Shown in pieces: positions 23,115 through 39,910 of a stretch of DNA of 64,000 nucleotides. This DNA is from Alphaproteobacteria bacterium (lineage in GTDB: Bacteria; Pseudomonadota; Alphaproteobacteria; Rhizobiales; Amorphaceae). The stretch covers positions 1 to 64,000 of the forward strand of contig JAUIJH010000001.1 in assembly GCA_030431335.1 (NCBI GenBank), written 5' to 3'. The notes below the pieces were generated by a model, which ran no database searches, was not told the DNA's origin, and was given only the letters and a program-made list of their open reading frames with translations. Both the position numbers and the translations under genes were made by a program. Each line of letters opens with the position of its first letter. Within the stretch, counting starts at the first letter, position 1.

Positions 23115-24422
23115 TCAGCGTTGCGGCGCGCGGCCGCCGATGGCATCGCGCCCGGCGAATGTCGCGGTCCGGCCGAGCTGTTCTTCCACGCGGATGGCGG
23201 CATTCCACTTGGCCATTCGCTCGGAGCGGGCGAAGGAGCCGACCTTGAGCTGGTCCGCCCCCCACCCGACGGCGAGGTCGACGATGGTGGTGTCTTCGGT
23301 CTCGCCGGAGCGGGCGGAGACCACGGTGTGCCATCCGGCCGCGTTGGCGGCGTGGAGGGCGGCAAGCGTCTCGCTCAGCGTGCCCGCCTGGTTCGGCTTC
23401 AACAGCACCGCGTTGCACGCGCCCGCCGAGGCCGCCTTCGCCACCCGTTCGGCCGACGTCACCAGATAGTCGTCGCCGATCACCTGGACGCTCGCCCCCA
23501 CCGCGGCGGTGAAGGCGATCATGCCCGCATCATCGTCCTCGGCGAGCGGATCCTCCACCGAAATCAATGGGTACTGGGTGCACCAGCCGGCGACACGCGC
23601 CACCATCTCGGCGCTGTCGACGTCCACCCGGTCGGCGGTGAGGCGGTAGGCGGAGCCGCTGCGGAACTGCGTCGCGGCTACGTCGAGCGCCAGGGCGACA
23701 TCCTCGCCCGGCCGGTAGCCGGCGCGCTCGATCGCGGCGACGCCTTCCTCGAGCGCCTCCTCGTTGGAGGCGAATTCGGGCCACCACCCCCCCTCGTCGG
23801 CAACGCCGCGCAGCAGCCCGCGCTCGGCCATGCGAAGCCCCGCCGCGCGATAGACCTCGGCGGCCATCACCGTCGCCTCGTCGAAGCTCGATGCGCCGAC
23901 CGGCACCAGCAGAATGTCCTGCAGGTCGATGCGCTGACCGGCGTGGGCACCGCCGCCATAGATCTGGATCATCGGCATCGGCAGGCGCGGCCGAAATCCG
24001 CCGATGTCGGCGAGGTAGCGCCACAGCGGCCGTCCCGCCGCGGCGGCGGCCGCGTGGGCGAGCGCCATCGAGACGGCGGTGGTGGCATTGCCGCCCAGGC
24101 GCGACTTGGTGGGCGTTCCGTCGAGGGCGACGACGCGCGCGTCGAGGCCGGCCTGGTCGCTCACCTCGCCGCCGACCAGCGCGGGGGCGATGGTCTCGCG
24201 GATCGCCGCCAGCGCCCGCTCGACGCCGAGGCCGCCGAACCGCTCTCCCCCGTCGCGCAAATCCACCGCCTCGTGCTTGCCGCGCGAGGCGCCCGCCGGG
24301 GCGATGGCGCGTCCGCTCGCGCCGCCCGCCAGCCGCACCTCCACCTCGACCGTGGGCCGGCCGCGCGAATCCCAGACGCGGCGGCAATCGACGGCCTCGA
24401 TACGGGTTGCGGCCAATGTCAT
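23115..24422 (-). CDS. Enolase-like protein (phosphopyruvate hydratase family, divergent active site)
   Basis: VWDSRGRPTVEVEV, ADEGGWWPEF, ALDVAATQF, SVEDPLAE, IGDDYLVTS, LLKPNQAGTLSETL conserved, but SHRSGET reads SARSGET. Confidence 0.85.
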   Translation of the reverse strand: MTLAATRIEAVDCRRVWDSRGRPTVEVEVRLAGGASGRAIAPAGASRGKHEAVDLRDGGERFGGLGVERALAAIRETIAPALVGGEVSDQAGLDARVVALDGTPTKSRLGGNATTAVSMALAHAAAAAAGRPLWRYLADIGGFRPRLPMPMIQIYGGGAHAGQRIDLQDILLVPVGASSFDEATVMAAEVYRAAGLRMAERGLLRGVADEGGWWPEFASNEEALEEGVAAIERAGYRPGEDVALALDVAATQFRSGSAYRLTADRVDVDSAEMVARVAGWCTQYPLISVEDPLAEDDDAGMIAFTAAVGASVQVIGDDYLVTSAERVAKAASAGACNAVLLKPNQAGTLSETLAALHAANAAGWHTVVSARSGETEDTTIVDLAVGWGADQLKVGSFARSERMAKWNAAIRVEEQLGRTATFAGRDAIGGRAPQR

Positions 24423-26237: not shown

Positions 26238-26954
26238 TCAAACGTTGCTGGTTTGCTCGAGCTGGCCGAGAAGGCCGCACATGCCGTAGCGCGGCTCGCC
26301 GCTGGGCGGGGCGACGGCGATGGCATCGGCCTCCCCCACCCGCACCGGCAGCGCGCCGAGCACTCCCACCGTCTCGTCCACCCAAGCCTTCGGCCCGTTG
26401 GCGACGATATCGGCAAAGCGCGGGCGCAGCGGCTCCACGGCGCGTGCGTGCAAGTCGAAGAAGCGGGCGAGCTCGGCGAAATAGGCCGGCCGGTCCGCCT
26501 CCCACAGCGCAAGAAGCGCCATATAGGCGGTGACGGCCGCGTCGCGCCGCTCGAGCGCCCCGTCGAGGCCCTTTTCGGCCGGCAGCCGCCACAGCGCGGC
26601 ATAGGCGTCCGGGTCGGCATCCACCTCGGGGCCGAACCAGATGCGCGCGTCGCCCCGCTCGGCGAGGCCGGCATTGTTCATCAGGACCAGCGCGGTGAGG
26701 TCGCCCGTGTTCACGGCCCGGTGCAGCGTGTTTGGCGCGAACTGGACGAGCTTACCCGGCGTCAGCTCGACGGTGCGAAATCCGTGCGCGGTGTCGTGCA
26801 ACTCAAGGGCGCCGGTGCCGGAGAGGACGTAGTAGGCCTCGTGCGTGATGGCGTGGACGTGCGGGCAGCCGCACTGCACGCCGTCCGGCGCCGGCCGCTG
26901 GCCGTAGACGCGCAGATGCGTCAGGCCGATGCCGGCGAGCGGTCCGTTCAGCAT
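26238..26954 (-). CDS. Cupin domain protein
   Basis: CPHVHAITHEAYYVLSGTGALELHD ... TPGKLVQFAPNTLHRAVNTGDLTALVLMN. Confidence 0.82.
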   Translation of the reverse strand: MLNGPLAGIGLTHLRVYGQRPAPDGVQCGCPHVHAITHEAYYVLSGTGALELHDTAHGFRTVELTPGKLVQFAPNTLHRAVNTGDLTALVLMNNAGLAERGDARIWFGPEVDADPDAYAALWRLPAEKGLDGALERRDAAVTAYMALLALWEADRPAYFAELARFFDLHARAVEPLRPRFADIVANGPKAWVDETVGVLGALPVRVGEADAIAVAPPSGEPRYGMCGLLGQLEQTSNV

Positions 26955-26966
26955 CGCGTTTCCTCC

Positions 26967-27905
26967 TCAGGCACTGGCGCCGGTGTAAGCGGCGAAGCGG
27001 CCGGCAAGGTCGAAGGCCTCGGCCGGCCCGTCGAAGGCGAGCACGCGGTAGCGCGCGGTGAGCGGCTCGCCGCGGCGTACGAGTTTCCCCGCAAGGCGGA
27101 ACGGGCCCACCGTGATGACGCCCCAATCGGCCACGAACCAGGACAGGTCGTCGTGGTCGGCCGGATGCGGGAACACCGCGAGCCCGGCGCGATGGCCGCC
27201 GCCCACAGGACCCTCCGCGCACACCCAGCGCGCGCCGGTGCCCGTCACGTTGGCGCCGCCGACCGCGCCGCGGTCGTCGAACATCGTGCCGCCGTTCGGC
27301 GCGGTCATCGTGTCGGCGGCGCGCACGTTGAAGTAGGCGTGCCGGGTGGGGCCGAGCGTGAAATCCCAATCCGCCGACGCCAGCACCGAGGTCACGTCGA
27401 TCACCGTCGCCCCGTCGACCAGCGAGACGTCGAGCGTGCGCGTCTCGCGTGCCGCCAGCCGCCCCTGGGGCGCCGCCCACTCCACCGGACCGCGCCACTC
27501 GATCGCCTGCGTCAGCCGGCACGCATCCGGCCCCAGCCGCTCGAACTCGGCTGCGCCCGCTACGAGTCGCCCCGGACCGCGCCCCTGAAAAACCTCGTCG
27601 ACATAGAAATTGTAGGTGTACTCCTCGAACTTCTCGCCCTCGACCGGCATCCGGCAGTGGACGTGGTCGGCGCCGATCCAGAACGAGTTGTGGTGCGGGT
27701 GATCGGCGGGACACTCGGAGGTCACCGGAAAGCCGGCCGGCGTGGTCAGCGGATAGACGTAGGGCCGCTGCCGCCCCTGGGTGAGGCCGAGCACGATGCG
27801 CCCGTCGCGCATCAATAGCTGTCGCTCGGTGCGCGCCCACGCCCCCTTCGGCAGCGCGATCGCCCCCTCGGCGAGGTAGAATCCAGTCGTGTCGTTTTCG
27901 TTCAT
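26967..27905 (-). CDS. DUF6807 / PmoA-like family protein
   Basis: PYVYPLTTPAGFPVTSECPADHPHHNSFWIGADHV and HAYFNVRAADTMT motifs characteristic of the family. Confidence 0.75.
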   Translation of the reverse strand: MNENDTTGFYLAEGAIALPKGAWARTERQLLMRDGRIVLGLTQGRQRPYVYPLTTPAGFPVTSECPADHPHHNSFWIGADHVHCRMPVEGEKFEEYTYNFYVDEVFQGRGPGRLVAGAAEFERLGPDACRLTQAIEWRGPVEWAAPQGRLAARETRTLDVSLVDGATVIDVTSVLASADWDFTLGPTRHAYFNVRAADTMTAPNGGTMFDDRGAVGGANVTGTGARWVCAEGPVGGGHRAGLAVFPHPADHDDLSWFVADWGVITVGPFRLAGKLVRRGEPLTARYRVLAFDGPAEAFDLAGRFAAYTGASA

Positions 27906-27906
27906 G

Positions 27907-29787
27907 TCAATTGCCGAGGATGTTGACGAGGCCGAGGCTGAGCGCAGGCACCAGCGATATCAGGACGATGGTGAGGATCAGGCCGAAGATGAACGGCAGC
28001 GCGGCGCGGAACACCGCCACCACCGGCGTCTTGGTCACCGCCGCTGTGGTGAATACCAGGATGCCGAGCGGCGGCGTCAACGCGCCCAGGCACAGATTGG
28101 CCACCAGGATGATGCCGAAGTGCACGGGGTCGATGCCCGCCGCCTTCACCAGCGGCACCAGGATCGGCACCAGGATCACCATCGCGGCGATCATCTCCAT
28201 GATCAGCCCGACGCCGATCAGGAAGAGGTTCACCACCAGGATGAGGAGCATCCAGTTGGTGGCGAGCGTCCCCATGGCGCGGGCGATCTCCTGCGGCACT
28301 TGCTCGACGACCATCAGCCAGGCGAAGGGCGAGGCCGCCGCGATGATCACCGTCACCGCCACGGTGTCGGACAGCCCCTCGCGCAGCGCGCGGAGCAGCC
28401 CCGCAGGCTTCGCGGTGCGGTAGACGAGGACGCCGCACAGCAGCGCGTAGAGCGTCGCCACCGCGCCGGCCTCCGTCGCGGTGAACACGCCGAAGCGGAT
28501 GCCGCCGACGATGATCACCGGCAGCACCAGAGCCGGCAGCGCTTTGAGCCCGCTGTCGAGCCGCTCCGCGCCGCTCGCCTTGGGCACGTCGCGCCCAAAG
28601 CCCCTGCGCACCGAGATGAGGTGGACCACCAGCGCCAGCGTCACCGCCATCAAGATGCCCGGCACGATGGTGGCGACGAACAGCGCCCCCACCGAGGCGG
28701 AGGCGAGCGCGCCATAGATGATGAGCCCCATCGAGGGCGGGATCATGTTGGCGAGGATCGCGCCCGAGGACGTGAGCGCGCACGAGAAGGGTTTTGGATA
28801 GCCGCGCTTTTCCATCTCCGGGATCAGCGTCTTGGCAAGCGCGGCCGCATCGCCCAGCGAGGAGCCGGAGACGCCCCCCATCAGCGCGTTGGTGAGGACG
28901 TTGACGTGGCCGAGGCCGCCGCGCAGGTGCCCCACCAGCGTGCTGGCGAAACCGATCAGCCGGCTGGTGATGCCGCCGACATTCATCAGCGCCGCCGCCA
29001 GCGTGAAGAAGGGGATGGCGAGGAGCAGGAAGGAATCGAGCGCCGAGGTCATGCTCTGCGGCAGCGTCACGATCATGATCGGCCCGTTGGGCAGGAACGC
29101 GATGAAGCAGCCGACGATCAGCGAATAGGCCACCGGCACGCCGAACAGGATGAGCGCCAGGGTGACGCCGAGCAGCAGCAGCCCCGCATCCGCCAGCTTG
29201 AGGAAGGAGGGGTCGATGCCGTAGGCGAGGCCGAAGAAGATCGCGATGCCGACGACCGTGGCGCCGAGCCCGGCGAGCGCGCTGCGCCAGCCCGGCAGCG
29301 GCTCGATCGCCATGAAGACCAGCGACAGCGCGCCCCCGACCGGGGCGGCGAGGTATAGATAGAGGAACGGCCAGCCCAGCGCCGGCGAGACATAGCTGGA
29401 GTGGGAGACGAGGCGCAGCCCGATCACCACTAGCAGCATCGCCGCGCACGCCATGATGACCCGCACCAGGAAGGCGTGGGCGGCGGCAACGCGACCCTCC
29501 AGCATTCCCGCGAACAGATCGATGGCGATGTGCCGGGAGCGGCGCACCAGCATCGCCGAGCCGAGGAACACGAGCCAGACGAAGGCCCAGCGCGCCATTT
29601 CCTCCGGCCACGTCAGCGAGTGGTTGAGGCCGTAGCGGAAGAACACCTGCACCAGCGTGATCGCCGTGGCGGCGACGAGGAGGGCCGCCGCGACGGTCTC
29701 GATCAGCCCGTCGAGCCAGTTCGCGAGCCGGGTCGGCAAGCCGCCCAGCCCGGGCGCGGGCGTCGAGGCAAGCGTGGATTCAGTCAT
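27907..29787 (-). CDS. TRAP transporter fused small-large permease (DctQ-DctM)
   Basis: 627 aa; N-terminal DctQ region (LTWPEEMARWAFVWLVFLGSAMLVRR) followed by DctM region (IPFFTLAAALMNVGGITSRLIGFASTLVGHLRGGLGHVNVLTNALMGGVSGSSLGD). Confidence 0.92.
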   Translation of the reverse strand: MTESTLASTPAPGLGGLPTRLANWLDGLIETVAAALLVAATAITLVQVFFRYGLNHSLTWPEEMARWAFVWLVFLGSAMLVRRSRHIAIDLFAGMLEGRVAAAHAFLVRVIMACAAMLLVVIGLRLVSHSSYVSPALGWPFLYLYLAAPVGGALSLVFMAIEPLPGWRSALAGLGATVVGIAIFFGLAYGIDPSFLKLADAGLLLLGVTLALILFGVPVAYSLIVGCFIAFLPNGPIMIVTLPQSMTSALDSFLLLAIPFFTLAAALMNVGGITSRLIGFASTLVGHLRGGLGHVNVLTNALMGGVSGSSLGDAAALAKTLIPEMEKRGYPKPFSCALTSSGAILANMIPPSMGLIIYGALASASVGALFVATIVPGILMAVTLALVVHLISVRRGFGRDVPKASGAERLDSGLKALPALVLPVIIVGGIRFGVFTATEAGAVATLYALLCGVLVYRTAKPAGLLRALREGLSDTVAVTVIIAAASPFAWLMVVEQVPQEIARAMGTLATNWMLLILVVNLFLIGVGLIMEMIAAMVILVPILVPLVKAAGIDPVHFGIILVANLCLGALTPPLGILVFTTAAVTKTPVVAVFRAALPFIFGLILTIVLISLVPALSLGLVNILGN

Positions 29788-29925: not shown

Positions 29926-30978
29926 TCAGGAATCCTGGCTGTTGCGGATCTTGGAGATCATCTCCTCGACCTCGGGCCCCTTGGCGCCGAACTCCTCGAA
30001 CAGCGGCTCGGTCGCCGCTTCCCACTTCTCGATGTCCTTGGGCTCATGCACCTTCACGCCCAGCTCCTTGAGCTGCTCCAGCGCGGCGGCCGCGTTGGCG
30101 CGGTTCGTGGCCCGCTGCTCGGCGAACACCTCCTTGGCGGTGGTGCGCACCAGCTCCTGCAGGTCCGGCGGCAGGGAATCCAGCCACTGCGCGTTGACGC
30201 GGATCGCCTTGGGCAGGAACCAGTGGTAGGTCAGCGTCAGGTTTTCGGCCTGCTCGTACCACTTGAAGCCGAGGATCGAGAACACGTCCGCTTCCAGCGC
30301 GTCGATCACGCCCGTGGAAAGCGCGCTGTACTGCTCCGCGTAGGGCAGCGGCGTGGGGTTGGCGCCGAGCTTGGACCAGAAATCGACCCACACCTTGAGC
30401 TCCGGCACGCGGATCTTGAGCCCCTTCAGGTCCTCGAGCGTCTCGACCGGGCGCTTCGACAGCAGATGCCGGAAGCCCACTTCGCCGTAGGCGACGAACT
30501 CCACGCCGGTCTTGTCGCGCGCGATCTGCGAGATCTCCTCGCCGAGCTCGCCCTGCAGCACGCTGTCGACGTGCACGTCGCTGGAATAGATGAAGCCCGG
30601 CGCGCCGCCCGCCGCGGCGATCTCGGGCGCCACCGCCTCTTCGGTGTCCGGCCCGCCGGCGGTCCCCTGGATGGTGCCCATGCGCGAGCCCTCGATGAGC
30701 TGCGTGTAGCTACCGAGCTGGCCGGCCGGGAAGTGCTGCGCCTCGATGCGCCCGCCGCTCTCCGCGTTGAGCCGCTGCGTCCAGGTCTCGAACGCCTCGG
30801 TGATCGGCGAGCCGATCGCCTCGTTGTGGGCGATGCGGAAGGTGTAGGTGTCCTGCGCCTGGGCCGTGCCGAGCCCGATGAGCGGCAGCGTCAGCGCTGT
30901 CGCCATCACGGCGGCGCCGGTGAGCTTGAGCATGGCGCGCCGATTGGGGCGCACGGCGTGCGTCTGGTGTCGGATCAT
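29926..30978 (-). CDS. TRAP transporter substrate-binding protein (DctP family)
   Basis: Signal region MLKLTGAAVMATALTLPLIGLGTAQA; LKIRVPELKVWVDFWSKLGANPTPLPYAEQYSALSTGVIDALE. Confidence 0.92.
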   Translation of the reverse strand: MIRHQTHAVRPNRRAMLKLTGAAVMATALTLPLIGLGTAQAQDTYTFRIAHNEAIGSPITEAFETWTQRLNAESGGRIEAQHFPAGQLGSYTQLIEGSRMGTIQGTAGGPDTEEAVAPEIAAAGGAPGFIYSSDVHVDSVLQGELGEEISQIARDKTGVEFVAYGEVGFRHLLSKRPVETLEDLKGLKIRVPELKVWVDFWSKLGANPTPLPYAEQYSALSTGVIDALEADVFSILGFKWYEQAENLTLTYHWFLPKAIRVNAQWLDSLPPDLQELVRTTAKEVFAEQRATNRANAAAALEQLKELGVKVHEPKDIEKWEAATEPLFEEFGAKGPEVEEMISKIRNSQDS

Positions 30979-31057: not shown

Positions 31058-31069
31058 GCGAACGTTTGC
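31058..31069. promoter_or_regulatory. Putative LacI operator (imperfect)
   Basis: GCGAACGTTTGC in the divergent SBP/LacI intergenic region. Confidence 0.65.
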
Positions 31070-31136
31070 CCGGCAACAGCCTTCCCGCCCCGGCGAGCAC
31101 CTCGAATTTTCGCGGCTCTATTCGCGCTTTCCTTGA

Positions 31137-31150
31137 TGCGAACGTTCGCA
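31137..31150. promoter_or_regulatory. Putative LacI operator (perfect 14-bp palindrome)
   Basis: TGCGAACGTTCGCA just upstream of the lacI start. Confidence 0.75.
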
Positions 31151-31164
31151 TAAAAACCCTTGCC

Positions 31165-32205
31165 ATGAGCAAGGCCGTCACCATCAAGGATATCGCGCGG
31201 ACGCTGGGCCTTTCGGTCTCGACAGTGGGCCGCGCCCTCGCCGACAGCACCCAGATCAGCGAAGAGACCAAGGCGCGCGTGCGCCAGGCGGCGCTGAAGC
31301 AGGGCTATGTCGCCCACTCCGGCGCGCGCGCCATGCGCTCCGGCCGGTCCACGCTGATCGGCCTGCTGGTGCCCGATATCCAGAACGATTTCTACGGCAC
31401 CGTCGCGCAGGCCCTCGCCGCCTGCTGCGCCGCCGCCGGCTATCAGCTCGTGCTCGCCGTCACCGACGAGAACCCGGACGTGGAGCTCAGCCATGTGCGC
31501 GGGCTGATGGAGGCGCGCGTGGCGGGGGTGGTCATCGTCGGCTCCGCGGCGCCGCGGCCCGAGACCCTCACCCTCCTCGCGCGCATCCACACCGTGCAGC
31601 TGATCCGCCGCATCGCGGGGCTCGACAGTGCCTGGTTCGGCATGGACGACGCGGGCTGCCTCGAAGTCCCCACCGCGGCGCTGATCGCGCTCGGCCATCG
31701 GCGCATCGCCTATGTCGGCGGCGCCAAGGAGCTGTCGACGGGCGATCGCCGGCTCGGCGGCTACCAGGCCGCCTTCGCCCGCGCCGGGCTCGAAATCCCG
31801 CACGACCTCATCCGCCTCGGCCCGCCGCGCGCGGCCGCGGCGGCGCAAATGTTCGCCGATCTGTGGTCGCACCGCGCGGCGCGGCCCACCGCCGTCGTCA
31901 CCGGCGGCGCGCGCCTCACGGTCGGCGTGCTGGAAAGCATCGCCGACCTGGGGCTCCAGGTGCCGGACGCGTTGTCCGTGATCGGCTTCGGCGATGCGCC
32001 GTGGCTCAAATGGTGGGGCACGGCGGGGCTCAGCACCGTCGCGCTGCCGGTGCGCGACATCGCCGCCTCGTGCGGCGAATACCTGATGCGCCGCATCAAC
32101 GAGAACGGCGAGGGCCGCAGCGCCGATGCCGCGCCCTTCCACGCCATGCACGCGCCCCACCTGGTGGCACGCTCCAGCACCGCCGCGCCGCCGCAGCGGG
32201 ACTGA
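31165..32205 (+). CDS. LacI family transcriptional regulator
   Basis: VTIKDIARTLGLSVSTVGRALADSTQISEETKARVRQAALKQGY. Confidence 0.95.
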   Translation: MSKAVTIKDIARTLGLSVSTVGRALADSTQISEETKARVRQAALKQGYVAHSGARAMRSGRSTLIGLLVPDIQNDFYGTVAQALAACCAAAGYQLVLAVTDENPDVELSHVRGLMEARVAGVVIVGSAAPRPETLTLLARIHTVQLIRRIAGLDSAWFGMDDAGCLEVPTAALIALGHRRIAYVGGAKELSTGDRRLGGYQAAFARAGLEIPHDLIRLGPPRAAAAAQMFADLWSHRAARPTAVVTGGARLTVGVLESIADLGLQVPDALSVIGFGDAPWLKWWGTAGLSTVALPVRDIAASCGEYLMRRINENGEGRSADAAPFHAMHAPHLVARSSTAAPPQRD

Positions 32206-32304
32206 CCGGCCACAGCGTTCGCGGGATCGGCAAGCGACCCGGAAGCACGCGGCCAGCAAAAGAGCCGGGGCGGTTTGGGCGAACACGCGTGAGCCGAGAC
32301 GGCT

Positions 32305-33456
32305 CTACGCCGCCACCGCCGGCAGATCGATCCAGCGCCGCTCGCGCCAGCTCTCCTCGGCCGCTTGCGCGTACTGCACGCCCGCCGCGCCGGCGCGCAG
32401 GTTCCACGGGAACTCGCCGCCCTCCACCAGGTGGCGCAGGAACATCTCCCACTGCATGCGGAAGGCGTTCTTGTAGGGCGCCGTTTCGGGGATCTGGTGC
32501 CAGTCCTTGTAGAAATCGACGGGCTCGGCGACGTCGAGGCTCCACTGGCCCTTGGGCGTCGATTCGCGCCGCTGCGCATGGCAGTGGCGCAGCCCCGCGA
32601 CGGCCGAGCCGTGGGTGCCGTCCACCTGCATCACGATGATGTCCTCGGTGCGCACGCGCACGCACCACGAGCTCATGATCTGCGCCATCGCCCCGCCTTC
32701 CAGGCGCGAGATGGACATGACCGAATCGTCCGCGTCGGCCTTATAGGCCTCGCCCTTCTCGTCCCACCGCTCGCCCACCAGCGTGTCGGCGTGGCACACG
32801 ATGTCGAGCGGGCGCCCGTTCATGGCCTCCAGCATGTAATAGTAGTGCGGCATCATATCGAGGATCATGCCGCCGCCCTCGGCCCGCTTGTAGTTCCAGG
32901 AGGGCCGCTGGGCGGGCTGCAAATCGCCCTCGAAGACCCAGTAGCAGCCCTCGATGCGCACCATCAGCACCTTGCCGAAGAAACCGGACTGCAAAAGCAT
33001 GCGCAGCTTCGCCATCCCCGGCGCCCACAACTTGTCCGCCACCACCCCGTGGCGCACGCCCTTCGCCTTGGCGGCTGTGTAGAGGCCGAGCGCGTCCTCG
33101 AATTTCTCCGCCGTCGGCTTCTCGGTGTAGATGTCCTTGCCCGCCTCGATGGCGCGATGGACATTGCCGACGCGCGCATCGGTCTTCACCGCGTCGAAAT
33201 AGACCGGGTAGGCCGGATCGCCGAGCAGCCCATCGAGATTGGTGGACCATTTCTCCACCCCCGCCGAGCGGGCGGCCGCCGCGACGCGCTCCTCGTTGCG
33301 GCCCACCAGGATCGGGTCCGGCATCAGCCGGGTGCCGTCCTTCAGCATCACGCCGCCATCGCGCCGGATCGCCGCGATGGCATTCCTCAGGTGCTGGTTG
33401 CCACCCATCCGGCCGGTGACGCCGTTCATGATGATGCCGATGGTGCGCGTGCTCAT
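32305..33456 (-). CDS. Gfo/Idh/MocA family oxidoreductase
   Basis: IGIIMNGVTGRMGGNQHLRNAIAAI ... DKLWAPGMAKLRMLLQSGFFGKV ... GGGMILDMMPHYYYMLEAM; dehydrogenase-like fold motifs. Confidence 0.85.
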   Translation of the reverse strand: MSTRTIGIIMNGVTGRMGGNQHLRNAIAAIRRDGGVMLKDGTRLMPDPILVGRNEERVAAAARSAGVEKWSTNLDGLLGDPAYPVYFDAVKTDARVGNVHRAIEAGKDIYTEKPTAEKFEDALGLYTAAKAKGVRHGVVADKLWAPGMAKLRMLLQSGFFGKVLMVRIEGCYWVFEGDLQPAQRPSWNYKRAEGGGMILDMMPHYYYMLEAMNGRPLDIVCHADTLVGERWDEKGEAYKADADDSVMSISRLEGGAMAQIMSSWCVRVRTEDIIVMQVDGTHGSAVAGLRHCHAQRRESTPKGQWSLDVAEPVDFYKDWHQIPETAPYKNAFRMQWEMFLRHLVEGGEFPWNLRAGAAGVQYAQAAEESWRERRWIDLPAVAA

Positions 33457-33513
33457 ATCGCCTCCCTGATCGCTCTCGTTTTCCGAGCGTTTGAATTTAT
33501 GCCTTCCTACTAC

Positions 33514-33525
33514 GCGAACGATTGC
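33514..33525. promoter_or_regulatory. Putative LacI operator (imperfect)
   Basis: GCGAACGATTGC in divergent Gfo/Idh - 2-HADH intergenic region. Confidence 0.5.
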
Positions 33526-33580
33526 ATTGACAATCATGAGCAGACTGAGGGGAATGCAGGAAAAGCGAACCAACATTCTC

Positions 33581-33592
33581 GCGAACGTTCGC
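33581..33592. promoter_or_regulatory. Putative LacI operator (perfect)
   Basis: GCGAACGTTCGC, identical to the core at 31138-31149. Confidence 0.75.
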
Positions 33593-33618: not shown

Positions 33619-34560
33619 ATGAAAGCGGTGCTACCCTACGATGCCTCGCCGCAGATCCGCCGCATCATCGAGGTGGCCGACACAGCCGCCGTCGAGATCG
33701 CCCTGCTGGCCGAGGACGATGCGGAGGGCTTCGCCCGCGCGCTCGAGGAGGCGGAGGTGCTGCTCCATGTGCTCGCCCCGGTGACGGCAGCCGTGATGGA
33801 CGCCGCCCCGCGGCTGCGCCTCGTGCACAAGATCGGCATCGGCGTCGACGCCATCGACCTCGCCCATGCCGATGCGAAGGGCATCGCGGTGTGCAACATG
33901 CCCGGCACCAACTCGGCCGCCGTCGCCGAGCTCGCCTTGTCGCTGATGCTGGCGGCGCTGCGCTCGATCATCCCCATCAGCGCGGCGGTGAAGGCCGGCC
34001 GCGGATGGCCGGCCGACACCGCCCTCCTCGACGGCGCCGGCGAGATCGGCCAGCGCACGGTCGGCCTCGTCGGCTACGGCGCGGTGCCGCGGCGTCTCGC
34101 GGCGGCGCTCACGGCGCTCGGCGCGCGCGTCATCGCCGCCGACCCCTTCGTGCAGGAGGCCGACATCCCCATCGTGCCGCTCGACACGCTGCTGCGCGAG
34201 GCCGACATCGTGTCCCTGCATGTTCCGCTGACGGAGGAGACGCGGGCCCTGCTCGACGCGCCGCGCATCGCCGCCATGAAGCGGGGCGCCATCGTCGTCA
34301 ACACGGCGCGCGGCCCGCTGATCGACGAGGCCGCGCTCGCCGAGGCGCTCGCCAGCGGCCACCTCGCCGCCGTCGCGCTCGACGTCTTCGCCGAAGAGCC
34401 GCCGCATCCGGGCAACCCGCTCCTCGGCCTTGCCAACGTGATTGCGACGCCGCACATCGCCTGGCTCACCGACGGCACCTGGCGCCGCAGCATGGCGGTC
34501 ATCGAGGAGAATTGCCGCCGCCTCGCCAGCGGCGCGCCCCTCCTCCACCGCGTCGTCTGA
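33619..34560 (+). CDS. D-isomer specific 2-hydroxyacid dehydrogenase
   Basis: VGLVGYGAVPRRLAAALTALGARVIAADPF ... VNTARGPLIDEAALAEALASGHLAAVALDVFAEEPP. Confidence 0.93.
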   Translation: MKAVLPYDASPQIRRIIEVADTAAVEIALLAEDDAEGFARALEEAEVLLHVLAPVTAAVMDAAPRLRLVHKIGIGVDAIDLAHADAKGIAVCNMPGTNSAAVAELALSLMLAALRSIIPISAAVKAGRGWPADTALLDGAGEIGQRTVGLVGYGAVPRRLAAALTALGARVIAADPFVQEADIPIVPLDTLLREADIVSLHVPLTEETRALLDAPRIAAMKRGAIVVNTARGPLIDEAALAEALASGHLAAVALDVFAEEPPHPGNPLLGLANVIATPHIAWLTDGTWRRSMAVIEENCRRLASGAPLLHRVV

Positions 34561-34569
34561 AAGGCGCTC

Positions 34570-34588
34570 GCGGCGGCTCTACCGCCGC
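34570..34588. other. Hairpin between convergent genes
   Basis: GCGGCGG-CTCTA-CCGCCGC, overlaps the stop of the minus-strand lacI. Confidence 0.4.
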
Positions 34589-35619
34589 CCCTTGGGCGGC
34601 GCGCCGACCGAGCCGTGCAGTTCGACGTGGGCGCTCAGCACCACGTCCTGCGGCGGCACCGTGCTGCCGCCGATCCGCTCGATGAGGATGCGCCAGGCGG
34701 CACGGGCGATGTCGCGCACGGGGTGGCGCACCACCGAAAGGCGCGGCTCCATGATATCGGCCCACTCCGGCTCGTCGAAGGCCAGCAGCGACACGTCCTG
34801 CGGAAAGGCGATGCCGTGCTGGCGGAAGGCGCGCACCGTCCACAGCGCGATGAGGCTGTTGCTCGCGATCAGCGCCGTCGGCGCGCCGCGGCCGGTGACG
34901 AGCTTCGCCACCGCCGCCACGTAGGCCGCCTCGTCGTCGCCCGATTCGCGCACGATCGCCGTCGTTCGCGCCACCCGCCCCATCACCGCCTCGAACGCCT
35001 CGATGCGCTGGCGCGTCACGATCAGTTGCGGCCGCCGCGCGATATAGGCGATGCGCCGGTGGCCGCGCGCCAGCAGCGCCTCGGTGGCCTCGGCCATCGC
35101 GGCGCGGTTGTCGAAGGTCACCTGGTCGAACCCGCCGGGGGCATAGGGCCGGTCGACGATCACCGCCGGCACGCCGGCCGCCTGCGTCGCCGCCAGCGCC
35201 TCCGCCGGATCGAAGCTCGGCACGATGATCACCCCCGCCACGCGATGCGCCAGCAGCGCGCGCACCCGTGTCGCCTCCGTGCCCGACTGATACTGGCTGA
35301 ACACCTGCATCACCTGGTACTGCTGCTCGGCCGCATCCTCGATGAAGGCATCCAGCAACGCGCCCAGATAGGCGCCGGCCGTATGCGGCAGGCACAGCCC
35401 GATCACCCGGCTCGTCTGCGTCCTGAGGCTCTTGGCCACCACGTCCGGCACGTAGCCGAGCGCGTCCACCGCCTGCAGCACGCGCTCGCGCCGCGCATCG
35501 CTGACGACGCGCGTCGCATTGAGGACGTTGGACACGGTGCCGACCGAGACACCGGCGTGCCGGGCCACGTCCAGGAGCGTTGGCTTGGCGATGGGACGCA
35601 TCGATTTCCTTTCGGCCAT
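34579..35619 (-). CDS. LacI family transcriptional regulator
   Basis: PTLLDVARHAGVSVGTVSNVLNATRVVSDARRERVLQAVDALGY. Confidence 0.95.
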   Translation of the reverse strand: MAERKSMRPIAKPTLLDVARHAGVSVGTVSNVLNATRVVSDARRERVLQAVDALGYVPDVVAKSLRTQTSRVIGLCLPHTAGAYLGALLDAFIEDAAEQQYQVMQVFSQYQSGTEATRVRALLAHRVAGVIIVPSFDPAEALAATQAAGVPAVIVDRPYAPGGFDQVTFDNRAAMAEATEALLARGHRRIAYIARRPQLIVTRQRIEAFEAVMGRVARTTAIVRESGDDEAAYVAAVAKLVTGRGAPTALIASNSLIALWTVRAFRQHGIAFPQDVSLLAFDEPEWADIMEPRLSVVRHPVRDIARAAWRILIERIGGSTVPPQDVVLSAHVELHGSVGAPPKGRR

Positions 35620-35649
35620 CGGGCGATTGACAGCAATCGATGCTAGCCG

Positions 35650-35663
35650 TTTAATCGTTTCAA
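35650..35663. promoter_or_regulatory. Putative operator for the second LacI
   Basis: TTTAATCGTTTCAA (reverse complement TTGAAACGATTAAA). Confidence 0.45.
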
Positions 35664-35721
35664 ATTCCACCCGCCCACGGCATCGACCTCTCGAGGACAG
35701 CGGCCTCCCGGCCCCGGCACC

Positions 35722-36855
35722 ATGAAGATCACCAAAATTGAGACGTTTAAATTCTGGGTCGACTGGTCGAACTGGATGTTCGTCCGCGTCGAGACGGACG
35801 AGGGCATCTCGGGCTGGGGGGAAGCCTCTCTGCACGGCGCGCTGGAGGCGGTGGAAACGGCCATCCACGAGCTGTCGCCCCACCTCGTCGGCGAGGATCC
35901 GGCCGGGCCGGAACGCCACTGGCACCGCCTCTACAATGCCTGGCGCTGGCGCGGCGGCGCCACGATGATGACGGCGCTCGCCGCCCTCGACATCGCGCTG
36001 TGGGACATCGAGGGCAAACGCCTCGGCGTCCCGGTCTGGCGCCTGCTCGGCGGCGCGCACCGCACCCGCCTGCCCGTCTATGCCAGCCACTGGATGTGGG
36101 GCCACATGGACCTCGACACGGTGCGCGAACGGGCGGCCGAAGCGGTCGCGCGCGGCTTCAAGGGCTTCAAGTGCATGCCCTTCCGCTTCGAGGAGCTGCG
36201 CCGCAACGAGGCGAGCGAGATCGCCCGCGCCGGCGACTTTCTCGCCGCCGCGCGCGAGGGCGCCGGCCCCGACACCGAGATCTACGTGGAGTGCAGCGAG
36301 TTCCTGTCGCCGCGCACCGCGCCGATGCTGGACCGCGCCCTCGCCCCCTCCCGCCCCGCGTGGCTCGAGGAGCCGATTCCCTTCGAGAACGCCAAGGCGA
36401 TGGCGCGCCTCGCCCGCGAGGTCGAGACCCCCATCGCCACCGGCGAGCGGCTGCTGTCGCGCTACGAGTTCCGCGAGCTTTTGGAACAAGGCGGGGCCAA
36501 GATCGTGCAGCCGGACCTGATGCACGCGGGCGGCATCACAGAATGCCGCCGCATCGCCGCGCTGGCGGACACCTATTACGTGCCGGTCGCGCCGCACAAT
36601 CCGGGCGGCCCCATCTGCACCGCGGCCGCAATGCACCTCGCCGCCTCCGTGCCCAATTTCCTCGTCCTGGAGCAGATGGAGCCGCAGCGGGCGATCCGCG
36701 ACGCCGCCAGCACCGTACCGATCCGCTTCGAGGACGGGCACTTCCTCCTGCCGGAGGGACCCGGGCTCGGCATCGAGCCGAACCTCGAGGCGCTCGCCGC
36801 CCACGCCTTCCAACCACAGCCCCGGAATGAACGAACCGGGGCGATCTATCGCTAG
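35722..36855 (+). CDS. Mandelate racemase / enolase superfamily (galactonate-dehydratase-like)
   Basis: MKITKIETFKFWVDWSNWMFVRVETDEGISGWGEASLHG ... WLEEPIPFEN ... TGERLLSRYEFRELL ... APHNPGGPICTAAAMHLAA. Confidence 0.9.
   Translation: MKITKIETFKFWVDWSNWMFVRVETDEGISGWGEASLHGALEAVETAIHELSPHLVGEDPAGPERHWHRLYNAWRWRGGATMMTALAALDIALWDIEGKRLGVPVWRLLGGAHRTRLPVYASHWMWGHMDLDTVRERAAEAVARGFKGFKCMPFRFEELRRNEASEIARAGDFLAAAREGAGPDTEIYVECSEFLSPRTAPMLDRALAPSRPAWLEEPIPFENAKAMARLAREVETPIATGERLLSRYEFRELLEQGGAKIVQPDLMHAGGITECRRIAALADTYYVPVAPHNPGGPICTAAAMHLAASVPNFLVLEQMEPQRAIRDAASTVPIRFEDGHFLLPEGPGLGIEPNLEALAAHAFQPQPRNERTGAIYR
35738..35751. promoter_or_regulatory. Putative second operator for LacI (inside codons 6-10 of the MR gene)
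   Basis: TTGAGACGTTTAAA; same TTGARACGWTTAAA pattern as the upstream site. Confidence 0.4.
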
Positions 36856-36864
36856 GGAGAGAAC

Positions 36865-38133
36865 ATGATCAAATCGCTGAAGCGCGCCGCGAGCCTCGGT
36901 TCGATGGCCGCCATCCTCGCCGCCGCCCCCGCGCTCGCCGAGCCGGTGACCATCGAGTGGCAGAACATCAACCTCACCGAAAGCCAGTACGAGCCGGTGT
37001 GGAAACACATGGTCGCCGATTTCGAGGCCGCCTACCCCGACATCAAGATCAAGCCGGTTCTCGTCGCCCGCAAGGACCACTGGACCAAGTTCGTCACCGC
37101 CGCGCAGGCGGGCGAGGCGCCCTGCGTCGTCACCACCGACATCGCGCCCGCCGCCTACAACGGCTACATCCAGTCGCTGGACGCTCTGTGGAACGCGGAA
37201 CCGGAAGAGTTCCGCAACGGCTGGAGCGAGGACATCATGCGCGGCGTCCGCTTCGACGGCGAAGTCTACGGCCTGCCCACCTATGGCGGCATCTACGCCG
37301 AGATCTACAATCGCGATCTGGTGGAGGCCGCCGGCCTCGACGCGTCCAACCCGCCCGAGACCTTCGCCGAGTACAAGACATGGGCCGAGGCTCTGTCGGG
37401 CGACGACCATTGGGCAACCGCGATCCTGGGCGGTCCGACCGACACCACCACGCGCGTGCTGCTGTCATGGATCTATGCCAACGGCGGTGAGCCCTTCGAC
37501 GAGGACATGACCGAGTCCCGTTTCGCCAAGGATCCCAAGAGCCTGGAAGCGATCAAGGCGTATCTGGGCATGGAGGCGGCCAAGCTCGCCGCGCCCGGCG
37601 CCACCACCACCAACTACCTGGAGCAGACGAACCTCTTCGCCCAACAGAAGATCGCCACCATGCGCAACGCCTTCTGGGGCATCGCCAAGGTGGTGGGCGA
37701 CAATCCGGACCTCGAAGGCAAGCTCTTCGTGGCGATGCCGCCGCACGGCGAGGGCGCCGCGCCCGCCACCGTCGCGCGCCAGGGCTCCGTCGCGATCTCG
37801 GCCAACTGCGAGCATCCCGAGGAAGCCTGGGAGTTCATCAAGTTCGACGCGCAGGCCAAATACGCCATCGAGCGCGCCCTCAAGGCCAACTTCATGCCGC
37901 TGCGTAACGACCTCGCCGACGCGCCCGAGGTGGCGGGCGACGAGATGCTGTCGAAGTTCCTCACCATCGGCCAGAGCGCCATCGCCTACCCGCCCTCGCA
38001 TCCCTATTGGGAGGACATCTCCTCGGGTGACATCGTGGAAGCCGTCCAGGCGGCGCTGCTCGATCCGGAGCGCACCGAGGAAATCTTCACGGCGCTCGAC
38101 GAAAAGCTGACCGAAAAGCTCAACGACATCTGA
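36865..38133 (+). CDS. ABC transporter extracellular solute-binding protein (family 1)
   Basis: Signal peptide; FEAAYPDIKIKPVLVARKDHWTKFVTAAQAGEAPCVVTTDIAPAAYNGYIQSLD. Confidence 0.92.
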   Translation: MIKSLKRAASLGSMAAILAAAPALAEPVTIEWQNINLTESQYEPVWKHMVADFEAAYPDIKIKPVLVARKDHWTKFVTAAQAGEAPCVVTTDIAPAAYNGYIQSLDALWNAEPEEFRNGWSEDIMRGVRFDGEVYGLPTYGGIYAEIYNRDLVEAAGLDASNPPETFAEYKTWAEALSGDDHWATAILGGPTDTTTRVLLSWIYANGGEPFDEDMTESRFAKDPKSLEAIKAYLGMEAAKLAAPGATTTNYLEQTNLFAQQKIATMRNAFWGIAKVVGDNPDLEGKLFVAMPPHGEGAAPATVARQGSVAISANCEHPEEAWEFIKFDAQAKYAIERALKANFMPLRNDLADAPEVAGDEMLSKFLTIGQSAIAYPPSHPYWEDISSGDIVEAVQAALLDPERTEEIFTALDEKLTEKLNDI

Positions 38134-38141
38134 GAGCACCG

Positions 38142-39077
38142 ATGAACCCGACGAACAGGACAGCCGCGGCGCTTCCGGCGCCGCGGTACGGACGCCGGCT
38201 CAAGTGGGCGCAGCGGCGCGCGGCGGCGGCGTTCCTCGCGCCCGCCTTCATCTTCCTCGCGTTCGTCGTGGTGTTCCCGCTCGGTCAGGCGTTCGTCACC
38301 AGCCTCTACCGCATCCGCGGGCTGCGCTCGAGCTTCGTCGGGTTCGACAACTACGTGCGCACCGTCACCGACGAGGCGTTCTGGTCCTCGCTCGGAACCT
38401 CGCTCGTCTTCACCGCCTCGTGCGTGGCGGCGCACCTTGCCATCGGCCTCGGCCTGGCGCTCCTCCTCAACCGCGTCACCGTCGCGCGCACCCTCTTCCG
38501 CATCGCGTTCCTGATGCCCTGGATCATCGCGCCCGCCATCGGCGCCACCATCTTTTTGTGGATGCTGGAGCCGCAGTTCGGCGTGATCAACTACCTGCTG
38601 CAGAGCGTGGGCGCGATCTCCGAGCCTATCGCCTGGCTCGGCCGGCCCTGGTCGGCGCTGGTCTCGGTGATCCTCGTCGACGTGTGGCGCGGCGTGCCGT
38701 TCATGATGCTCCTGATGCTGGCGGGCCTCCAGACCATCCCCATCGAGCTCTACGAGGCCGCCCGCATCGACGGGGCGACGCCCTTGCAGCAGTTCCGCTA
38801 CATCACGCTGCCCAACCTCGCCTATCTGATGATCGTCGGCACCACGCTCGACATCATCAACACCATCCGCCACTTCGACATCATCGCGGTGATGACGGGC
38901 GGCGGCCCGGTCAGCGCCACCGAGGTGCTGCCGGTGCTCCTCTACAACACCGCCTTCCGCGCCAACCGGCTCGGCGAGGCGGCCACCATCGGCATTCTGC
39001 TCCTGGGCATCGTGCTCGCCTTTTCCATCGTCTATATCCGCGCCATGCGGCTCGACCGCGACGGGGGGCGCGACTGA
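38142..39077 (+). CDS. ABC sugar permease (MalF/UgpA type)
   Basis: EAARIDGATPLQQFRYITLPNLAYLMIVGTTLDIINTIRHFDIIAVMTGGGP. Confidence 0.93.
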   Translation: MNPTNRTAAALPAPRYGRRLKWAQRRAAAAFLAPAFIFLAFVVVFPLGQAFVTSLYRIRGLRSSFVGFDNYVRTVTDEAFWSSLGTSLVFTASCVAAHLAIGLGLALLLNRVTVARTLFRIAFLMPWIIAPAIGATIFLWMLEPQFGVINYLLQSVGAISEPIAWLGRPWSALVSVILVDVWRGVPFMMLLMLAGLQTIPIELYEAARIDGATPLQQFRYITLPNLAYLMIVGTTLDIINTIRHFDIIAVMTGGGPVSATEVLPVLLYNTAFRANRLGEAATIGILLLGIVLAFSIVYIRAMRLDRDGGRD

Positions 39078-39910
39078 TGACGCGCAGCACCCTCCTTACC
39101 CGCACCGCGTTCTGGCTAACGCTGGCGGTGGCGCTCGTCGTCTTCCTGTTTCCCATCTACTGGATGGTCAACACCTCGCTGAAGCCCAGCGAGGAGATCT
39201 TCCTGTCCCCCCCCACCTTCTACTCGGTGAACTGGACGTTCGACGCCTATTTCGACGTTCTCGCCAACCGCCCGCTGTTCCGATACCTGATCAACAGCTT
39301 CATCGTCGCCACCGGAACCACCATCGTCGCGGTGAGCCTGTCGGCACTCACCGCCTACGGCTTCACCCGCTTCAAGATCCGTTTCGCGACGGCCTTCATC
39401 GTCTTCCTCATCTTCACCAAGATGCTGCCGGAGACGCTGCTGATCATCCCTTATTTCCAGCTCATGTCGAAGCTGGGGCTGATCAACACCTACCTGTCGC
39501 TGATCCTCGCCTATTCTTCGTTTGCGCTCCCCTTCGCGGCCTGGATCCTGATCGGCTTCTTCCGCTCGATCCCGACCGAGCTCGACGAGGCGGCGATGAT
39601 CGACGGCGCCTCGCGGCTCGACATCTTCCTCAAGGTGGTGTTGCCGCTCGCCCGGCCGGGGCTGGTGGCGGTGGCGATGTTCACCTTCCTCCTCGCCTGG
39701 AACGCCTACGTCTTCGCCCTGGTGCTGACGACGGATGCGGACATGTTCGTCATCTCCGTCGGCGTCGCCAATCTGGTGGGCGAATACCAGGTGGAGTGGA
39801 ATGAGTTGATGGCCGCCGCCCTCGTGGGCGCAGCGCCGGTGCTGGTCATCTTCTCCATCCTCAACCGGCATCTGGTGGAGGCGATCACGGCGGGCGCGCT
39901 CAAGGGATGA
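39077..39910 (+). CDS. Carbohydrate ABC permease (MalG/UgpE type)
   Basis: DEAAMIDGASRLDIFLKVVLPLARPGLVAVAMFTFLLAWNAYVFALVLT; overlaps upstream stop. Confidence 0.93.
   Translation: MTRSTLLTRTAFWLTLAVALVVFLFPIYWMVNTSLKPSEEIFLSPPTFYSVNWTFDAYFDVLANRPLFRYLINSFIVATGTTIVAVSLSALTAYGFTRFKIRFATAFIVFLIFTKMLPETLLIIPYFQLMSKLGLINTYLSLILAYSSFALPFAAWILIGFFRSIPTELDEAAMIDGASRLDIFLKVVLPLARPGLVAVAMFTFLLAWNAYVFALVLTTDADMFVISVGVANLVGEYQVEWNELMAAALVGAAPVLVIFSILNRHLVEAITAGALKG

What the first reader, a model, noticed from the sequence alone, without database searches (positions are those of the whole stretch)
31058..33592. LacI regulon defined by repeated GCGAACGTTCGC operators
TGCGAACGTTCGCA (31137-31150) and GCGAACGTTTGC (31058-31069) lie between the TRAP operon and the divergent lacI. 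GCGAACGTTCGC (33581-33592) and GCGAACGATTGC (33514-33525) lie between the divergent Gfo/Idh and D-2-hydroxyacid dehydrogenase genes. Each promoter region has one perfect and one imperfect copy, with centres 80 and 67 bp apart, which fits paired LacI operators. This joins nine structural genes into one predicted pathway.
Basis: partly seen in the sequence, partly recalled or inferred. Interest (0 to 1): 0.72.

Follow-up and report, generated by a model that had tools for sequence, protein, structure and literature searches.

The report
A real LacI-type operon switch
Four short mirror-image DNA sites in front of a transport-and-enzyme gene cluster are very probably the binding sites of the repressor encoded next to them; this is an ordinary kind of bacterial switch, but it controls an uncharacterised breakdown pathway, and its DNA code can be seen changing together with the protein in relatives.

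Summary
In detail: all four sites are at the stated coordinates. In the 5.6 Mb genome the exact 12-mer occurs at three places, two of them here; the 14-mer YGCGAACGTTCGCR occurs only at these two promoters. The count alone is not enriched (2-3 expected); the placement is.

Orthologues of this LacI (41-57% identical) lie beside the same genes elsewhere, and most of those loci carry CG-centred palindromes in the matching intergenic regions. The half-site changes with the recognition helix: TVGR with AAC.GTT (here, L028, L063, L064), TVAR with ATC.GAT (L046, L061, L062), H-x-TVSR with CAC.GTG (Burkholderiales, L043). By its effector domain the window's repressor groups with a TVAR protein, yet its helix and operator are both of the TVGR type.

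So this is a local, probably autoregulated LacI-family regulon: two divergent promoter regions, four transcription units, nine structural genes plus lacI. Looping between the pairs is not supported: no tetramerisation tail, no shared helical phase; one operator per divergent gene is simpler. Binding is untested and the substrate unknown; the enolase-like enzyme has conserved active-site changes. New member of a known kind.

The parts
31138..31149 (.). Operator O1, perfect GCGAACGTTCGC (16-bp palindrome ATGCGAACGTTCGCAT at 31136-31151), 15 bp upstream of the lacI start codon
31058..31069 (.). Operator O2, GCGAACGTTTGC, 79 bp upstream of the dctP start codon
   Evidence: two copies 65-66 bp apart also in the LacI/DctP region of relatives L046, L061, L062
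33581..33592 (.). Operator O3, perfect GCGAACGTTCGC, 26 bp upstream of the 2-hydroxyacid dehydrogenase start codon
33514..33525 (.). Operator O4, GCGAACGATTGC, 57 bp upstream of the Gfo/Idh start codon
   Evidence: paired sites in front of the Gfo/Idh orthologue in L028
31165..32205 (+). LacI-family repressor (LacI1, 346 aa), recognition helix SVSTVGR, divergent from the TRAP operon
   Evidence: Pfam LacI 1.9e-11 and Peripla_BP_3 2.6e-26
29926..30978 (-). TRAP solute-binding protein DctP, first gene of the operon
   Evidence: PF03480 3.3e-62
27907..29787 (-). Fused TRAP permease DctQ-DctM (start codon chosen by eye)
   Evidence: PF04290 and PF06808
26967..27905 (-). DUF6807 protein, function unknown
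   Evidence: PF14100 3.6e-42
26238..26954 (-). Cupin protein
   Evidence: PF07883
25451..26227 (-). Fumarylacetoacetate-hydrolase-like enzyme (FAH); named from the sequence read by eye, no family scan run
   Evidence: tblastn orthologues beside LacI in L028, L035, L043, L046, L063
24419..25447 (-). APH-like kinase (weak similarity to methylthioribose kinase)
   Evidence: orthologues in L029, L030, L035, L043, L046, L047
23115..24422 (-). Enolase paralogue with changed active-site residues (QEF to QDI/QDF, SHRSGE to SARSGE)
   Evidence: TIGR01060 472.8 bits; other copy on C57; alignment
32305..33456 (-). Gfo/Idh/MocA-family dehydrogenase, preceded by O4
   Evidence: PF22725, PF01408
33619..34560 (+). 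D-2-hydroxyacid dehydrogenase, preceded by O3
   Evidence: PF02826 1e-52

Best explanation
The four sites are operators of the LacI-family protein encoded at 31165-32205. A dimer binds each palindrome, with the hinge helices at the central CG and the recognition helix (SVSTVGR) reading the GCGAAC half. Without the inducer it blocks four outward-facing transcription units: the seven-gene TRAP operon, lacI itself, the Gfo/Idh gene and the 2-hydroxyacid dehydrogenase gene. Uptake of the substrate produces an inducer that releases it. Shown here: the sites, their placement, their near-uniqueness, and their conservation and covariation with the helix in relatives. Inferred: binding, repression rather than activation, autoregulation, and an inducer that is the transported compound or a product of it.
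For: Sites and placement. YGCGAACGTTCGCR exact only at these two promoters in 5.6 Mb. No shared palindromic 12-mer in 20,000 simulated region pairs. L028: LacI 50% identical with helix SISTVGR, and three GCTAACGTTAGC sites, one before FAH-2HADH-DUF6807 and two before Gfo/Idh. L063 and L064: helix SPSTVGR, four GCnAACGTTnGC sites each in about 20 kb; in L063 these lie at or just upstream of gene starts. L046: LacI 57% identical, most of the cluster, helix STSTVAR, two GCAATCGATTGC sites 65 bp apart between LacI and DctP. L061 and L062: same place, helix SVSTVAR, 66 bp apart. Thirteen Burkholderiales loci and L043, with H-x-TVSR helices, carry TGCACACGTGTGCA with at most one mismatch. G at NT-6 with Arg at AA-20 fits the LacI recognition pattern in PMC2978694; CG-centred even palindromes, 72% autoregulation and mostly local control are the LacI norm in PMC4052901.
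Against: No binding or expression data. No genome of the same genus or family searched has the orthologue, so the exact motif could not be checked in close kin. The G351 orthologue (L047, helix SVSTVGR) shows no clear site near it. One more exact 12-mer, on C187 at the 5' end of an IclR-family gene, is unexplained. No consensus sigma-70 promoter was found in either region.
Confidence: 0.88

Rival explanations
1. The sites belong to another LacI-family paralogue of the genome, such as LacI2 at 34579-35601, and LacI1 is a bystander or only one of several binders.
For: A second LacI gene is 2.4 kb away, and the genome has many LacI-like genes (33-36 candidates in the first look).
Against: In relatives the palindromes sit beside LacI1 orthologues and change with the LacI1 helix. 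No copy of the motif lies in the LacI2/MR_MLE intergenic region. None of the fetched relatives showed a LacI2 orthologue beside the cluster: LacI2 matched only the LacI1 orthologues and other LacI paralogues, at 24-34%.
Confidence: 0.06
2. The pairs work as a looping unit: a LacI tetramer bridges the two sites in each promoter region (a variant of the best explanation, not exclusive of it).
For: Two sites per region here and in L046, L061, L062 and L028.
Against: LacI1 ends at residue 346 in APPQRD with no leucine-heptad tail; its alignment to E. coli LacI structures stops at residue 279. Spacings of 80, 67, 66, 65 and 35 bp share no helical phase. L063 has four units with one operator each. 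One operator per divergent gene explains the pairs.
Confidence: 0.08
3. Chance palindromes in CG-rich DNA.
For: The exact 12-mer count in the genome equals the Markov expectation of 2-3, and one of the three copies lies at the 5' end of an IclR gene with no evident link.
Against: Two exact copies fall in two adjacent promoter regions totalling 348 bp, each with a second copy; the simulation gave 0 of 20,000. Independent recurrence in relatives with changed letters.
Confidence: 0.02

Closest known systems
Local LacI-family regulons of bacteria (collection of Ravcheev et al. 2014, PMC4052901)
   Same: CG-centred even palindrome, repressor gene beside the target genes, target operon for a transporter and catabolic enzymes, sites upstream of start codons, likely autoregulation
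   Different: Pathway not recognised here among characterised ones (the collection's tables were not searched); recognition helix is TVGR rather than the dominant TVSR; operators O1 and O3 lie closer to the start codon (15 and 26 bp) than most sites in that survey (30-140 bp)
E. coli LacI with its lac operators
   Same: Fold, helix-turn-helix, more than one operator per control region
   Different: No tetramerisation tail, no distant intragenic operator found, even CG-centred palindrome with a different half-site
TVSR recognition code (Camas, Alm and Poyatos 2010, PMC2978694)
   Same: Arg at AA-20 goes with G at NT-6; NT-4 differs between AA-15/AA-16 pairs (V-S with G, I-S with T, others with A)
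   Different: That code was restricted to TVSR regulators; here AA-19 (G, A or S) goes with the bases at NT-2 and NT-3

Membership tests
LacI/GalR transcription factor family (the regulator) | N-terminal LacI helix-turn-helix plus periplasmic-binding-protein-like effector domain | tested here: met
   PF00356 residues 6-49, PF13377 residues 171-339, both above cut-off
LacI-family operator | Even palindrome with central CG, in promoter regions | tested here: met
   All four sites have a central CG and lie in the two divergent intergenic regions; O2 and O4 are imperfect palindromes
LacI-family operator | Conservation in front of orthologous genes and covariation with the recognition helix | tested here: met
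   L028, L043, L046, L061-L064 and Burkholderiales loci; L047 is an exception
LacI-family operator | Binding by the cognate repressor, relieved by an inducer | not testable with these tools
   needs EMSA or footprinting
Looping (tetrameric) LacI system | C-terminal leucine-heptad tetramerisation domain | tested here: not met
   Protein ends at residue 346 without it (read by eye); alignment to E. coli LacI stops at residue 279
Known named LacI equivalogs (RbsR, GalR, PurR, GntR and others) | NCBIfam equivalog score above curated cut-off | tested here: not met
   Best is RbsR 134.9 bits against a cut-off of 382
Phosphopyruvate hydratase (the enolase-like gene of the regulon) | Family profile above cut-off | tested here: met
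   TIGR01060 472.8 bits, cut-off 300
Phosphopyruvate hydratase (the enolase-like gene of the regulon) | Catalytic Glu of QEF and His of SHRSGE present | tested here: not met
   D and A in all nine cluster copies; the genome's other enolase has E and H

The most novel reading that the evidence does not exclude
Within this LacI clade, residue AA-19 of the recognition helix (Gly, Ala or Ser), constant in the published TVSR code, is a further specificity switch that sets the inner operator bases NT-2/NT-3 (AA, AT, CA). The switch happened at least twice together with rewriting of all operators in the regulon. The regulon itself serves an undescribed pathway built around an altered enolase.
Probability: 0.3. 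Interest if true: 0.55.

Novelty: new member of a known kind. Interest (0 to 1): 0.4.

Why it matters
It gives a firm, testable regulon for an uncharacterised catabolic cluster found in Alphaproteobacteria and Burkholderiales, with a ready assay for the inducer (release of LacI1 from GCGAACGTTCGC). The relatives form a natural series in which repressor helix and operator change together, useful for testing or extending the LacI recognition code beyond TVSR proteins. The enolase-like enzyme with two conserved active-site changes points to an unassigned reaction.

Tried and rejected
Genus and family search for orthologues: only the window's own genome among 10. Genome-wide count of the 12-mer as evidence: dropped, it equals the Markov expectation. 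Near matches elsewhere in the genome as further regulon members: those examined mostly fall inside predicted genes, a few appear intergenic in a crude gene call, and totals are at control level. The Burkholderiales-type motif ATGCACACGTGTGCAT in this genome: absent up to 2 mismatches. Literature for the motif: nothing relevant; for the gene set and DUF6807: nothing useful found. Plain enolase role (glycerate to phosphoenolpyruvate): weakened by the E-to-D and H-to-A changes. A sign test on independent pairs had too few pairs. Sigma-70 scan of the promoters: no hits.

Full report
Observation. The four sites are exactly where stated. O1 (31138-31149) is the core of a 16-bp perfect palindrome, 15 bp upstream of the lacI ATG at 31165. 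O2 (31058-31069) is 79 bp upstream of the dctP ATG at 30978. O4 (33514-33525) is 57 bp upstream of the Gfo/Idh ATG at 33456. O3 (33581-33592) is 26 bp upstream of the 2-hydroxyacid dehydrogenase ATG at 33619. Each of the four divergent units therefore has one operator nearest to it.

Chance. In the 5.6 Mb genome the exact 12-mer is at three places: these two and C187:5824. The third sits at the 5' end of an IclR-like gene; whether it is inside the gene or just before it depends on the start codon. Order 1-3 Markov models give 1.8-3.3 expected, so the count is not enriched. The placement is: YGCGAACGTTCGCR is found exactly only at the two promoters, and with one mismatch allowed the total equals the reversed-pattern control. 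None of 20,000 simulated pairs of such regions shared a palindromic 12-mer.

Genes. Pfam gives DctP, fused DctQM, DUF6807, cupin, Gfo/Idh, D-2-hydroxyacid dehydrogenase and two LacI proteins; NCBIfam adds the enolase-like protein and an APH-like kinase. The FAH name is by eye, supported by orthology only. The seven genes of the TRAP operon are on one strand with gaps from -4 to about 138 bp.

Relatives. No other genome of the same family searched has an orthologue. In wider searches orthologues of 41-57% identity turned up, often beside the same enzymes. L046 has six of the seven TRAP-operon genes plus 2HADH; L043 has six plus Gfo/Idh; the cupin gene, which was among the queries, had no match in either. 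L028 has FAH, 2HADH, DUF6807 and Gfo/Idh, with an MFS-like transporter (by eye) instead of TRAP.

Operators of the relatives. L028 (helix SISTVGR): three GCTAACGTTAGC. L063 and L064 (SPSTVGR): four GCnAACGTTnGC each; L065 (SPSTVGR): ATGCTAACGTGAGCAT. L046 (STSTVAR): two GCAATCGATTGC 65 bp apart between LacI and DctP. L061 and L062 (SVSTVAR): in L061 GCGCAATCGATTGCGC and GTGCAAACGATTGCGC, 66 bp apart in the same place, and likewise in L062. L043 and thirteen Burkholderiales loci (SHATVSR or SHTTVSR): TGCACACGTGTGCA with at most one mismatch. L027 (SASTVAR): GCATACGTGTGC. L047 (SVSTVGR) and L041 (SHATVSR): none recognised. NT-6 is G and NT-5 is C almost throughout; NT-2 to NT-4 vary with the helix.

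Covariation. A tree of the effector domain only (alignment columns 62 onward, helix left out) puts the window's protein with L046 (93/86 support), which has TVAR and ATC.GAT, not with the other TVGR proteins. Forcing all TVGR proteins into one clade is disfavoured (p-AU 0.009), as is forcing the TVAR proteins L046, L061 and L062 together (p-AU 0.024). The groups were named after seeing the tree and branches are long, so this is suggestive. The independent-pairs test has only 1-2 pairs and cannot reach significance. The cleanest contrast is the window against L061: the same AA-15/AA-16 (V, S), AA-19 G against A, and half-sites GAAC against AATC. Other helix-turn-helix and hinge residues differ too, so AA-19 is a candidate, not a proven cause.

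Mechanism. Palindromes with a central CG, local control and autoregulation are the LacI norm (PMC4052901), and R at AA-20 with G at NT-6 fits the reported linkage (PMC2978694). Looping is not favoured: no heptad tail, alignment to E. coli LacI ends at residue 279, and the spacings have no common phase.

Pathway. The compound is probably a carboxylate, because TRAP transporters mostly carry such compounds (general knowledge). The enolase-like protein is a subfamily: in all nine cluster copies the Glu of QEF is Asp and the His of SHRSGE is Ala, while the genome's other enolase keeps both. That these two residues are catalytic is general knowledge of enolase. The reaction is therefore open. No paper describing the gene set was found; one paper mentions DUF6807 but was not read.

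Verdict. A solidly predicted, otherwise ordinary LacI-family regulon. Interest comes from the uncharacterised pathway and the helix-operator series.

Noticed in passing
window 23115-24422: Enolase paralogue with E-to-D and H-to-A changes at catalytic positions, shared by all nine cluster copies examined; the genome has a separate enolase on C57 that keeps both residues.
   Followed up: partly
window 34579-39910: A second LacI gene (34579-35601), divergent from an MR/MLE-type enzyme gene and an ABC transporter operon, without the GCGAACGTTCGC motif; a weak TTTAATCGTTTCAAA palindrome near 35650 may be its own operator.
   Followed up: no
L016 5824-5835 (G000:C187): Third exact GCGAACGTTCGC of the genome, at the 5' end of an IclR-like gene divergent from an ABC-type solute-binding protein gene; chance or a further operator.
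   Followed up: partly
L063 7708-16344, and L064: Related LacI/FAH/enolase cluster with a branched-chain-amino-acid-type ABC transporter, a carboxymuconolactone-decarboxylase-like and a VOC-dioxygenase-like gene (named from sequence read by eye), suggesting the pathway may reach beyond plain sugars.
   Followed up: partly
L028 4526-4572: Two perfect 16-bp palindromes GCGCTAACGTTAGCGC with centres only 35 bp apart in front of the Gfo/Idh orthologue.
   Followed up: no
window 26967-27905: The DUF6807 protein recurs in this cluster (L028, L043, L046) but has no solved relative found by sequence and no clear function in the papers searched.
   Followed up: partly
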